A stretch of DNA of 49,333 nt from the NCBI GenBank assembly GCA_017391465.1, contig JAFOYH010000137.1:1-49333 (forward strand), given 5' to 3'. The notes under the pieces are model-generated. The model was not told the origin of the DNA, ran no database searches, and saw only the letters and a list, made by a program, of their open reading frames with translations. The translations under genes were made by a program, and so were the position numbers. Source of the stretch: Lachnospiraceae bacterium (GTDB lineage Bacteria > Bacillota_A > Clostridia > Lachnospirales > Lachnospiraceae). Shown in pieces: positions 13,443 to 17,202 of the stretch (position 1 is its first letter; every line of letters starts with the position of its first letter).

Positions 13443-14822
13443 ATGTATAAAATTGATTTCAACCGCCCGATCAAAATCCATTTTATGGGTATTGGCGGCA
13501 TCAGTATGAGCGGACTTGCTGAAGTCCTTCTGGAACGTGGTTTTATCATTACCGGTTCCGATATGAAAGCTTCTCCGATCACAAAAAAACTCGAAGCCCA
13601 TGGTGCTTCCATCATCTACGGTCAGAAAGCCGAAAATATTACAGATGATATGGACCTTGTTGTTTATACAGCAGCTATCCATCCGGACAATCCGGAATAT
13701 CAGGCCGTCATTGCTAAAAACATTCCGCACATGGACCGTGCAGAACTTCTTGGTCAGATGATGAACAACTATCAGAATTCCATCGCTGTTTCCGGAACAC
13801 ATGGAAAAACAACAACAACATCCATGCTTTCATTGATCATGCTTGAAGGGAATTGCGATCCGACCATTTCTGTCGGTGGTATATTAAAGGATATTGATGG
13901 CAATATCCGCGTGGGTCGTTCTGAAAACTTCATTACAGAAGCATGCGAATACACAAACAGCTTTTTAAAATTCAATCCACGTATTGAAATCATCTTAAAT
14001 GTAGAAGCCGATCACCTGGACTTTTTTAAAGATTTGGATGACATTCGCCATTCTTTCCGTCTTTTCTCTGAAAAGCTGAATAATGATGGTGTCCTGATCA
14101 TCAACAGTGATATTCCAAACGTAGATTACTTTATTAAAGACCATTCATATAAAGTATTAACCTATGGATTTAAAGAAAGCGATCATTTCACAGCCAAAAA
14201 CATTCAATTCAATGATATGGCCTGCGGAAACTATGATTTATATGTGAACGGTGAAATGGTGGATCATATTGCCTTAAATGTGACAGGTATGCACAATGTA
14301 TCCAACTCCTTATCTGCCATTGCAGCGGCTTTTGAACTTGGCATTTCCATGAAAGATATTAAAGCCGGATTGCTTAAATTCAAAGGTACGGATCGTCGTT
14401 TTGAATATAAAGGTGAAGTAAACGGCATGACCATCATCGATGATTATGCGCATCATCCAACAGAGATTGAAGCTACTCTGACCGCGGCTAAAAATTATCC
14501 ACACAACAAAGTATGGTGTGTTTTCCAGCCACATACCTATACACGTACCAAATCCCTGCTTCACGAATTTGCCGAAGCACTTATCCACGCTGATCATGTC
14601 ATCCTTGCAGATATCTATGCAGCACGTGAAGTGGATCCTGGAGATATTCACTCCCGTGATCTTCAGGCAGAAATCAAAAAACTTGGTACCGACGCAGATT
14701 ATTTTCCATCTTTTGCAGAAATCGAAACATTCCTTCTGGATAACTGTGAAACAGGAGATCTTGTAATCACTATGGGTGCTGGCGATATCGTCAATGTAGG
14801 AGAAGAACTTTTAAACAAATAA
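13443..14822 (+). CDS. murC: UDP-N-acetylmuramate--L-alanine ligase MurC
   Basis: Cytoplasmic peptidoglycan precursor enzyme that adds L-Ala to UDP-MurNAc using ATP. 459 residues in the three Mur-ligase domains: N-terminal UDP-binding fold with GIGGISMSG at 16-24, central ATPase with GTHGKTTTTSM from 118, and the C-terminal domain with DDYAHHPTEIEATL and the FQPHTYTRTK segment. Start ATG follows AAGGAAGTG. It is a single-gene unit closed by a strong terminator at 14837-14868. No residue of the catalytic set appears lost. Confidence 0.97.
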   Translation: MYKIDFNRPIKIHFMGIGGISMSGLAEVLLERGFIITGSDMKASPITKKLEAHGASIIYGQKAENITDDMDLVVYTAAIHPDNPEYQAVIAKNIPHMDRAELLGQMMNNYQNSIAVSGTHGKTTTTSMLSLIMLEGNCDPTISVGGILKDIDGNIRVGRSENFITEACEYTNSFLKFNPRIEIILNVEADHLDFFKDLDDIRHSFRLFSEKLNNDGVLIINSDIPNVDYFIKDHSYKVLTYGFKESDHFTAKNIQFNDMACGNYDLYVNGEMVDHIALNVTGMHNVSNSLSAIAAAFELGISMKDIKAGLLKFKGTDRRFEYKGEVNGMTIIDDYAHHPTEIEATLTAAKNYPHNKVWCVFQPHTYTRTKSLLHEFAEALIHADHVILADIYAAREVDPGDIHSRDLQAEIKKLGTDADYFPSFAEIETFLLDNCETGDLVITMGAGDIVNVGEELLNK

Positions 14823-14868: not shown

Positions 14869-14993
14869 ATATTATAATAAATATATACGAGAACTCTGTG
14901 TTTTTTACAAATATGATTTCAAACATTACAAAAGATAAACATCGAATAAATGGTTTCTTATTGACAATACTTTTTATGGAAGGATGTGTTATC

Positions 14994-15536
14994 ATGCCAT
15001 TACTCAAAGAGCAGCTTTATACCATTGAAGACATCTATAGATTACCCGATGGCGAACGTGCAGAATTGATCGATGGGCATATTTATTACATGGCACCACC
15101 AGGCCGAAAGCACCAACGAATCCTTGGTGAATTATTTACAGCCATTTACAACTATATCAAATCCAATAACGGCTCCTGCGAACCATATATTGCACCATTT
15201 GCCGTATATCTTAATAAAGATGACAAGAATTACGTTGAACCCGATATATCTGTTATTTGTGACAAATCCAAACTTGATGACAGAGGATGTAATGGTGCTC
15301 CCGACTGGATTATTGAAATTGTTTCTCCTTCCAGCAGGCGTATGGATTATTATACCAAGTTATTTAAATACCGTACTGATGGTGTAAGAGAATACTGGAT
15401 TGTCGATCCCGATAAAAATCGAATTATAATTTATAATTTCGAGTCCGAAGATACCATTGAATATTCTTTCTCAGATTCAATCAAAGCAGGTATTTACGAT
15501 GACCTGATCATTGATTTTTCAAAATTAGATATCTAA
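14994..15536 (+). CDS. Uma2 family protein (PD-(D/E)XK endonuclease fold, DUF820)
   Basis: 180 residues. The family layout is visible: an N-terminal YTIEDIYRLPDGERAELIDGHIYYMAPPG segment, the metal-site strand VEPDISVICDKSK, and WIIEIVSPSSRRMDYYTKLFKY with the downstream GVREYWIVDPDKNRIIIY, which together correspond to the PD-(D/E)XK nuclease core (Asp, then Glu-x-Val-Ser). No Uma2 cellular role is well established. The longest frame starts at 14898, but ATG 14994 is preceded by GGAAGG and begins at the conserved domain. It is transcribed alone between the murC terminator and its own terminator at 15546. The family is often scattered and multicopy, so it may be a recent arrival (inference). 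Confidence 0.85.
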   Translation: MPLLKEQLYTIEDIYRLPDGERAELIDGHIYYMAPPGRKHQRILGELFTAIYNYIKSNNGSCEPYIAPFAVYLNKDDKNYVEPDISVICDKSKLDDRGCNGAPDWIIEIVSPSSRRMDYYTKLFKYRTDGVREYWIVDPDKNRIIIYNFESEDTIEYSFSDSIKAGIYDDLIIDFSKLDI

Positions 15537-15645: not shown

Positions 15646-15883
15646 TTATCCACTTCCCGAATCCTTGATTTCACCACTGTTTTCTCCACTTATCCACATT
15701 ATCCACATACTTATTAACATTTTCCCGTTTTTCCACCTGTGGATAATTCCATTTACATAACATTTATCCACATCACCCACAATTCATCGCAAAACCCCTG
15801 TTTTTTCAGGGTTTTTCGACAATCCGATGTTTCCAGAAATAATTATGCAACAAAACTTATCCACATTATCCACACTTTCCACA
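15646..15883. promoter_or_regulatory. DnaA-box cluster upstream of the dnaD-dnaC operon
   Basis: Six exact TTATCCACA boxes occur within 185 bases: 15690-15698, 15699-15707, 15738-15746 (reverse), 15764-15772, 15857-15865 and 15866-15874. Near-consensus boxes are at 15646-15654 (TTATCCACT, one mismatch), 15682-15690 (TTCTCCACT) and 15875-15883 (CTTTCCACA). Two groups are stacked head to tail at 8-9 base steps (15682/15690/15699 and 15857/15866/15875). The last box ends 26 bases before the dnaD -35. This is known DnaA-binding sequence; regulation of the operon, or DnaA titration, is the inferred role. Confidence 0.9.
15791..15816 (+). terminator. Terminator-like hairpin inside the DnaA-box cluster
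   Basis: AAAAC-CCCTG / CAGGG-TTTTT stem with one bulged C, a TTTTTT loop and a T-tract on the plus strand. No annotated gene ends here; the nearest plus-strand gene already has its own terminator. It may block transcription entering the cluster or end a short unannotated RNA. Confidence 0.5.
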
Positions 15884-15909: not shown

Positions 15910-15938
15910 TTTTCATTCTGTTTAAAAAATGCTATACT
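15910..15938 (+). promoter_or_regulatory. Promoter of dnaD-dnaC
   Basis: TTTTCA, 17-base spacer, TATACT, with the extended -10 TGC directly upstream. Predicted transcript start near 15945. Lies immediately downstream of the DnaA boxes. Confidence 0.65.
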
Positions 15939-16026: not shown

Positions 16027-17202
16027 ATGATGAATACGATCCAGTTACATACCGATATGCCTCGTCATATTACCATGATCCCCAACGCTTTTCTGGATCA
16101 TTATATGGCTGGTGCCAACGGTGAATTTTTAAAAATCTATCTTTATCTGCTCCGATGGGCAGGCTGTCCTGAATCCAACATTACGACAGCCTCCATTGCA
16201 GATTTTTTTAATATGACAGAGAACGATATCAAGCGTGCACTGCGTTTCTGGGAACAGGAGGATTTGCTGCATATCGCGTGGGACGATTCCGACAACATTG
16301 CCGCCATCTGTCTTCGACCGGTAACAGCTCCATATAACAGAGAAACACAGGGAATATCCAACGATTCCCCAAACACATTCTCTATGAATGCAGCACCATC
16401 CTCGATCGCATCCAAAAATACTGCCCCAACAAAAACAGGCACGCAGCATTTTGAAGAAACAAAATCAGACACTGCTTCCATTCCAGACCATCTTCCAGCT
16501 TATCCTGTGGAAGACCTGGATGACTTTATGACCAATCATCACGGAGATGAGCTTTTCTTTGTCATTCAGCAGTACACTGGCAAACCATTAAGTCCTACCG
16601 ACATGAATACCATTCTTTTCTTCTACAAAGAACTTGGCATGTCCATTGACTTAATTGAACATCTTTTTGAGCATTGCATATCTGGTGGACATCGTCGCAT
16701 GAACTATATTCAGACTGTTGCCATCAACTGGGCAACCAGTGGAATCACTACCATTGAAGAAGCCAAGTCCTATTGTTCCGGCTTCAATCAACTAAACAAT
16801 GCTGTTATTAGTGCTTTTGGCATTAAAAATCGTTATCTGACCGATGACGAACTCCAATTCCTCCGTAAATGGAGTAAAGAGATGCAGTTTTCTCAGGAAC
16901 TGATCGTTGAAGCCTGCAAACGCACGATTCTGACGGCTCATTCGGCCAGCTTTAAATATGCCCACTCCATTTTGGAACGGTGGAAGACCAACAATGTCCA
17001 ATCGATGGAAGATGTGCGTCGCCTGGATGAAGCTTTTGAAAAATCAAAAACCGAACGTGCAAAACACCAGGCACAAAACACAGCGACAACATCCGGGAAA
17101 AAACCTGCATCCCGTTTCCATAATTTCAATCAGCGTTCCTATGATTACGGAAAGATGGAGATGGAATTTGTCAAAAAACTTCAGGAACGTAAGCAACCTT
17201 AA
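16027..17202 (+). CDS. dnaD: DnaD-domain replication initiation protein
   Basis: Primosome protein that helps load the replicative helicase in Firmicutes. 391 residues: an N-terminal winged-helix region (about 1-100, with FLKIYLYLLRWAG and TTASIADFFNMTENDIKRAL), a low-complexity linker (about 105-165), then two copies of the DnaD/DnaB helical domain. Both copies keep the family YxxxIxxxW-type motif: YIQTVAINW and YAHSILERW. B. subtilis DnaD has a single such C-terminal domain, so the double arrangement is like DnaB or clostridial DnaD-like proteins. Two adjacent ATGs (16027, 16030) follow GAGGT. It is 25 bases from dnaC, and the DnaA-box cluster lies upstream. Confidence 0.92.
   Translation: MMNTIQLHTDMPRHITMIPNAFLDHYMAGANGEFLKIYLYLLRWAGCPESNITTASIADFFNMTENDIKRALRFWEQEDLLHIAWDDSDNIAAICLRPVTAPYNRETQGISNDSPNTFSMNAAPSSIASKNTAPTKTGTQHFEETKSDTASIPDHLPAYPVEDLDDFMTNHHGDELFFVIQQYTGKPLSPTDMNTILFFYKELGMSIDLIEHLFEHCISGGHRRMNYIQTVAINWATSGITTIEEAKSYCSGFNQLNNAVISAFGIKNRYLTDDELQFLRKWSKEMQFSQELIVEACKRTILTAHSASFKYAHSILERWKTNNVQSMEDVRRLDEAFEKSKTERAKHQAQNTATTSGKKPASRFHNFNQRSYDYGKMEMEFVKKLQERKQP

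What the first reader, a model, noticed from the sequence alone, without database searches (positions are those of the whole stretch)
15646..15883. Dense DnaA-box cluster directly in front of the helicase-loader operon
Six perfect TTATCCACA boxes in 185 bases plus three near matches, arranged in two head-to-tail triplets at 8-9 base steps and with one reverse box, immediately upstream of the dnaD-dnaC promoter. This suggests that the initiator DnaA controls the supply of helicase loader, or that the site is a DnaA reservoir like the B. subtilis DnaA-box clusters. It is unlikely to be the chromosomal origin: dnaA/dnaN/gyrB are absent and gene direction does not switch around it.
Basis: partly seen in the sequence, partly recalled or inferred. 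Interest (0 to 1): 0.75.

Follow-up and report, generated by a model that had tools for sequence, protein, structure and literature searches.

The report
DnaA-controlled promoter of helicase-loader genes
In many bacteria of one large family, two tight groups of binding sites for DnaA, the protein that starts chromosome copying, sit at helix-matched distances from each other and from the promoter of the helicase-loading genes, which suggests that DnaA itself controls the supply of the next replication proteins.

Summary
The cluster is real: six perfect TTATCCACA boxes in 185 bases (15690-15874), where 200 resampled windows never gave more than two, just before dnaD-dnaC. It is not oriC: skew does not switch here, while relatives switch at dnaA. 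The element is conserved: in 172 of 348 genomes of a relative's family a head-to-tail box pair is followed by an extended -10, and 132 of 140 fetched hits have dnaD or dnaC downstream. The new result is geometry. The distance from the promoter-proximal array to the -10 falls in steps of about one helical turn (48-50, 57-60, 66-70, 78-80 in 112 of 123 loci; period 10.3). The distance between the two arrays (59-171 bases) has period about 11.2, a repeat of the size seen for DNA loops in cells. Both signals survive phylogenetic pairing and thinning; three control distances show none. The loop period was confirmed in 21 loci not seen before. Best reading: DnaA at the two arrays forms one complex, probably looped, that touches RNA polymerase at the dnaD promoter. 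No binding or expression data exist here.

The parts
13443..14822 (+). murC; its 3' end was recognised shortly upstream of dnaD in 66 of 97 regions
   Evidence: TIGR01082 murC 476.9 bits
14898..15536 (+). Uma2-family gene lying between murC and the arrays in the window
   Evidence: PF05685; in many relatives the first array follows the murC stop directly
15690..15707 (+). distal array: two abutting perfect DnaA boxes (9-base step), preceded by TTCTCCACT at 15682
   Evidence: 149 bases from the proximal array
15738..15746 (-). reverse perfect DnaA box; pairs with the box at 15699 as an RNA hairpin without a T-run
   Evidence: -11.9 kcal/mol, z -5.74
15764..15772 (+). single perfect DnaA box between the arrays
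15796..15811 (+). terminator-like hairpin with T-run between the arrays; its tail holds TTCGACA (15815)
15857..15883 (+). proximal array: two perfect abutting boxes plus CTTTCCACA
   Evidence: ends 49 bases before the -10
15910..15938 (+). predicted dnaD promoter: weak -35 TTTTCA, extended -10 TGCTATACT
   Evidence: (alignment of 122 loci)
16027..17202 (+). dnaD
   Evidence: PF07261, TIGR01446
17228..18238 (+). dnaC-type AAA+ protein, probable helicase loader
   Evidence: NF005304 338.9 bits ('ATP-binding protein'); PF01695

Best explanation
The cluster is a two-site DnaA control region for the dnaD-dnaC operon. DnaA fills an abutting array whose promoter-side edge lies at distances from the -10 that differ by whole helical turns between species (near -61, -71, -81 or -91 if transcription starts 12 bases after the first base of the -10), and a second doublet 59-171 bases further up. 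The two assemblies lie on matching faces and most likely touch each other by looping the DNA between them; the proximal one faces RNA polymerase at a promoter with a weak -35 and an extended -10. The likeliest output is class-I-like activation by free DnaA, so that initiator and loader rise together; the loop could tune or reverse this. Shown here: conservation, near-exclusive link to dnaD, helical phasing.
For: 172 of 348 family genomes hit by the array-plus-promoter pattern, against 3 hits of the reversed control pattern in the two searches; 94 of 100 and 38 of 40 fetched hits have dnaD or dnaC downstream. Array-to--10 distance: 38 of 42 first loci at 48-49, 56-60, 68-70 or 79; helical steps noted as hypothesis before the pattern searches; 123 loci then give best period 10.3, R 0.70, 112 of 123 on-mode; R 0.884 for 63 three-box arrays, 0.658 for 57 two-box arrays. 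Array-to-array distance, 84 loci: best period 11.25, R 0.73; R 0.25 at 10.5. Independent tree pairs: 33 pairs, 0 of 2000 nulls as good; 29 pairs, p 0.003; three control distances p 0.66, 0.13, 0.62. Loop phase stated beforehand and met in 21 newly fetched loci, p about 2e-5 without correction for kinship. One tip per cluster at threshold 1.0: mean R 0.76 (n 93) and 0.72 (n 69).
Against: No binding or expression data. 70 of 86 distal arrays also look like one arm of a terminator behind murC, so the distal boxes may be kept partly for that. 61 of 97 homology-found loci, some from other families, miss the strict array-plus-promoter rule. 11 of 123 loci lie off the modes (38, 46 three times, 55, 56, 61, 72, 88, 91, 99). 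The 66-67 class (18 loci) is about 3 bases off the 69-70 mode, and 16 of those 18 carry a further box just downstream of the counted array (11 of 105 in the rest), so its true edge lies closer to the promoter and out of this simple register. A 10-12-of-12 style promoter scan does not single out the promoter. Phasing is expected for a repressing loop as well.
Confidence: 0.6

Rival explanations
1. Repressing loop: DnaA joins the two arrays and shuts the dnaD promoter when DnaA is abundant (negative feedback).
For: The 11.2-base period between arrays is of the size reported for repression loops in cells (about 10.9 for lac, passage in PMC1831498); several B. subtilis DnaA targets are repressed (PMC4447404 passage).
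Against: In the 42 loci, where any distance below 110 was allowed, the smallest array-to--10 distance was 44, so the array does not cover the promoter (later rules looked only beyond 25 bases); the -35 is weak, which suits an activator.
Confidence: 0.3
2. DnaA reservoir (like B. subtilis DnaA-box clusters or E. coli datA): the boxes titrate DnaA and are doubled soon after initiation because they lie near oriC; any effect on dnaD is secondary.
For: 11 of 14 relatives with both genes placed have dnaD within 300 kb of dnaA, median 183 kb. B. subtilis has six clusters outside oriC whose deletion causes early initiation (passage in PMC13220808).
Against: A reservoir needs no fixed helical phase to one promoter and no fixed gene partner.
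Confidence: 0.2
3. The boxes are not read by DnaA: they are terminator arms behind murC or sites of another factor.
For: 77 of 86 distal arrays have a reverse TGTGGAT within 60 bases, 70 of 86 with a T-rich tail; strong hairpin in the window.
Against: The phased proximal array needs no such partner; in the window a separate gene lies between murC and the boxes and the hairpin has no T-run, yet the boxes are perfect. The consensus equals the DnaA box.
Confidence: 0.06
4. A second or relic replication origin.
For: Dense DnaA boxes beside replication genes.
Against: Skew is -0.07 to -0.32 in the bins within about 8 kb on both sides; relatives switch at dnaA, where they have their own box clusters. 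Same-strand box steps at dnaA loci are 11 or 12 in 18 of 32 cases, before dnaD 9 in 210 of 282.
Confidence: 0.02

Closest known systems
B. subtilis DnaA regulon (sda, ywlC, vpr and others) and oriC-proximal DnaA-box clusters
   Same: DnaA boxes in regions outside oriC; DnaA activates sda and represses others (PMC4447404 passages); clusters affect initiation (PMC13220808 passage)
   Different: dnaD is not in the list of direct targets in the passage read; abutting 9-base arrays and paired helical phasing are not described in the passages read
Caulobacter dnaB (replicative helicase) with predicted DnaA boxes
   Same: A helicase gene in the DnaA regulon (PMC8203912 passage)
   Different: Gene for the helicase, not the loader; another phylum; no phased arrays in the passage
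Class I CRP-activated promoters
   Same: Activator site centred at -61.5 or further upstream, contact to the alpha-subunit C-terminal domain (PMC2859248 passage); that workable positions go by helical turns is recalled
lac and ara repression loops
   Same: Effect of the spacing between two sites oscillates with the in-cell helical repeat (about 10.9 bases for lac in the PMC1831498 passage; 11.1-11.3 recalled)
   Different: Seen here as an evolutionary pattern of natural spacings, not as measured repression

Membership tests
DnaA-regulated promoter | consensus DnaA boxes at the promoter, more than chance | tested here: met
DnaA-regulated promoter | boxes conserved at the same gene in relatives | tested here: met
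   52 of 66 murC-linked regions with a perfect forward box, 0.4 expected; 172 of 348 genomes by pattern; 94 of 100 before dnaD
DnaA-regulated promoter | site position tied to the promoter | tested here: met
   helical phasing
DnaA-regulated promoter | DnaA binds and changes transcription | not testable with these tools
   needs footprint and expression
Chromosomal origin | GC-skew switch at the site | tested here: not met
Chromosomal origin | dnaA beside it | tested here: not met
   no dnaA among the 15 distinct window proteins scanned (other window genes not scanned); dnaA 47-713 kb from dnaD in 14 relatives
DnaA reservoir (datA / DnaA-box cluster) | many boxes outside oriC, on the oriC side of the chromosome | tested here: inconclusive
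   met in relatives; the window's own genome is not held
DnaA reservoir (datA / DnaA-box cluster) | deletion advances initiation | not testable with these tools
   experiment
DNA-loop regulation | two sites at helically phased distance | tested here: met
   period 11.2-11.25
DNA-loop regulation | physical loop | not testable with these tools
   experiment

The most novel reading that the evidence does not exclude
DnaA works here as a looping, class-I-like transcription factor: abutting 9-base box arrays form two short assemblies that are kept in register with each other at the helical repeat of looped DNA and with RNA polymerase at that of linear DNA, giving a family-wide circuit in which the initiator directly sets the supply of the helicase loader.
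Probability: 0.4. Interest if true: 0.85.

Novelty: new variant of a known kind. Interest (0 to 1): 0.72.

Why it matters
If right, it links the two steps of replication start, origin opening and helicase loading, through one regulator across a large bacterial family. It also offers a natural experiment: evolution has tried many spacings and kept mostly those in helical phase, which gives sharp, cheap bench tests (insert 5 or 10 bases) of whether DnaA loops DNA and contacts RNA polymerase.

Tried and rejected
A reverse near-box 62 bases before the first array in many relatives looked like a conserved origin element; read by eye it is the 3' end of murC (LLITMGAGD coding) and was dropped.

A CCTTG...GG-TTT element near the promoter: a loose pattern finds it in 15 of 123 loci only, dropped.

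The idea that the 9-10 base steps come from gain or loss of one box: tested by extending arrays over degenerate boxes (up to 2, 3 or 4 mismatches) and by using only three-box arrays; the best period stayed 10.3. It is not fully excluded for the 66-67 class.

What is prospective and what is not: the helical-turn idea came and was noted before the pattern searches. The array-to--10 distances of all 180 hits were visible, so the later sets are no blind test of that distance. The array-to-array period came from then on discovery and first later set together; only the 21 loci were a fresh test, with the phase noted. In one search the nulls searched periods on a coarser grid than the data, a small bias towards significance. 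The full-sample R of the three control distances was 0.17, 0.21 and 0.35.

Rows dropped: one search took 100 upstream regions (window, 43 of 44 loci, 56 of the matches), 97 usable; L036 and L142 are the same locus, and without it the counts are 52 of 66 and 7 of 30; 6 of 100 fetched hits had no dnaD/dnaC; 36 of 97 homology-found and 87 of 94 verified new loci met the rule; 2 of 123 lacked a usable DnaC; one search used 120, of which 84 with a distal array; 2 of 40 had no dnaD (both stretches cut by a contig end), 3 no promoter by the rule, 3 an array over the mismatch limit. L003 and L192 are the same locus, removed without effect; 2 of 16 genomes left out (dnaA and dnaD on different contigs); G008 is kept although its dnaD has no box pair.

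Full report
Observation. The window holds six perfect DnaA boxes in 185 bases before dnaD-dnaC. Resampling gives 0.8 perfect boxes per 49-kb window on average and never more than two in 185 bases (200 resamplings). The boxes form a distal doublet (15690-15707), a reverse box (15738), a single box (15764) and a proximal triplet (15857-15883) that ends 49 bases before an extended -10 (TGCTATACT, 15930-15938).

Not an origin. GC skew is -0.07 to -0.17 in the 2-kb bins over the cluster and negative in all bins of the window except two far away (+0.004 at 27-29 kb, +0.022 at 41-43 kb); there is no switch at the cluster. In three of the four relatives whose dnaA neighbourhood I read (L146, L147, L149) the skew goes from about -0.2 to about +0.2 at dnaA, with box clusters before and after the gene; in the fourth (L148) the change is weak, about -0.1 to +0.05. 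Same-strand box steps up to 20 bases at dnaA loci are 11 or 12 in 18 of 32 cases (some loci overlap and count twice); before dnaD they are 9 in 210 and 12 in 40 of 282. The dnaD set was partly chosen by a 9-base pattern, but the loci, found by DnaC homology alone, also show the 9-base step often.

Conservation. DnaC homologs were found in 44 loci and in 61 of 61 relatives of G001. Of 97 usable upstream regions 60 have a perfect box within 450 bases. Where a murC end was recognised, 52 of 66 intergenic regions hold a perfect forward box against 0.4 expected and 39 of 66 an abutting doublet against 0.0; in the rest 7 and 2 of 31 (one duplicate among the 31). The titled loci are mostly Lachnospiraceae; the Peptoniphilus, Tepidibacter and Dethiosulfatibacter loci have no box in 600 bases. 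In 348 genomes drawn from the family of G001 (68% DnaC identity to the window; the closer G019, 77%, is among them; the family's name is not told), TCCACA-N3-TCCACA followed at 35-96 bases by TGNTATANT hits 172 genomes (88 and 99 in the two searches; reversed control pattern 2 and 1). In the order of Dethiosulfatibacter (G016), 3 of 120, gap 36-66 only. Of 100 hits drawn at random, 94 have dnaD downstream and 92 dnaC; of 40 more, 38 have one of them.

Helical phasing to the promoter. In 42 homology-found loci the array-to--10 distance was 48-49 (11), 56-60 (8), 68-70 (15) or 79 (4), with four others at 44, 46, 75 and 100. In 123 loci the best period between 4 and 20 bases is 10.3, R 0.70; 112 of 123 fall at 48-50, 57-60, 66-70 or 78-80. 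Three-box arrays alone give R 0.884 (n 63), two-box arrays 0.658 (n 57). If the steps came from losing 9-base boxes one would expect 49, 58, 67, 76; the many at 69-70 and 79 do not fit, and the period stays when degenerate boxes are counted in. The 66-67 class (18 loci) fits less well: 16 of 18 have a further box just downstream of the counted array.

Helical phasing between arrays. 84 loci have a distal doublet by the rule; its distance to the proximal array runs from 59 to 171 bases, about ten turns, and keeps phase with period 11.25, R 0.73; at 10.5 R is 0.25. A period above 10.5 is what looping in cells gives: about 10.9 bases for lac in PMC1831498 (passage); 11.1-11.3 for other systems is recalled.

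Controls. On a DnaC+DnaD tree phylogenetically independent pairs that differ by at least 4 bases give mean cosine 0.624 for 33 pairs (0 of 2000 jittered nulls as good) and 0.456 for 29 pairs (p 0.003), period left free. The distances -10 to start codon, proximal array to start codon and distal array to start codon show nothing (p 0.66, 0.13, 0.62). Discovery and later loci agree in phase (7.1 and 6.8 at 10.3; 2.25 and 2.26 at 11.2). I noted the expected phases and fetched 40 more hits: 32 usable for the first distance (already seen, so not blind; phase 6.95) and 21 for the second (not seen before; phase 1.87, p about 2e-5 at the stated phase, not corrected for kinship). Keeping one tip per cluster at threshold 1.0 leaves mean R 0.76 (n 93) and 0.72 (n 69).

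Promoter. Aligned on the -10, 122 loci show TRTGNTATAMT (TG and TATANT were required by the search; the T and R before TG and the A/C inside were not) and a -35 of which only TT is strongly kept. That, and array edges near -61, -71, -81 and -91 if transcription starts 12 bases after the first base of the -10 (assumed), resemble class I activation (PMC2859248 passage). The sign is inferred, and a repressing loop is a live rival.

Position. In 14 relatives with both genes placed, dnaD lies 47-713 kb from dnaA (median 183 kb, 11 within 300 kb), and in 12 of 14 it is transcribed toward dnaA. One of the 14 (G008, 713 kb) has no box pair before dnaD. The window fits: dnaD lies on the C-rich strand. 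This would suit a reservoir role as well.

Second use of the distal boxes. In 70 of 86 distal arrays a reverse TGTGGAT with a T-rich tail follows, so the second box is probably also an arm of a terminator behind murC. In the window the hairpin is strong (z -5.74) but has no T-run, and a Uma2 gene separates murC from it.

Literature. By the titles and abstract starts listed, searches showed no paper on DnaA control of dnaD or of a helicase loader in Clostridia and none on phased DnaA arrays; only open-licence papers are held, so this is weak evidence of absence. Read as passages only: PMC8203912, PMC4447404, PMC7561715, PMC1831498, PMC13220808, PMC2859248.

Noticed in passing
window 15752-15760 and relatives: TTTACATAA occurs between murC and dnaD in 18 of 66 murC-linked regions (0.5 expected) and also in some dnaA loci; its reader is unknown.
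   Followed up: partly
window 15815-15821: TTCGACA, reverse complement of a Spo0A-box-like TGTCGAA (motif recalled), is in 12 of 66 regions against 1.5 expected; it may be only a terminator tail.
   Followed up: partly
window 14898-15536: A Uma2-family gene sits between murC and the arrays, where many relatives have the array right after the murC stop.
   Followed up: no
14 relatives: dnaD-dnaC is transcribed toward dnaA, against the fork, in 12 of 14; essential genes usually run with the fork (recalled).
   Followed up: partly
L046, L058, L055, L059: Two assemblies (G006, G014) have two genes with a DnaA C-terminal domain; in G014 one is short, 374 aa.
   Followed up: no
L004 and L034: One Roseburia MAG has two contigs with the same box pattern before dnaD-dnaC, perhaps an assembly duplicate.
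   Followed up: no
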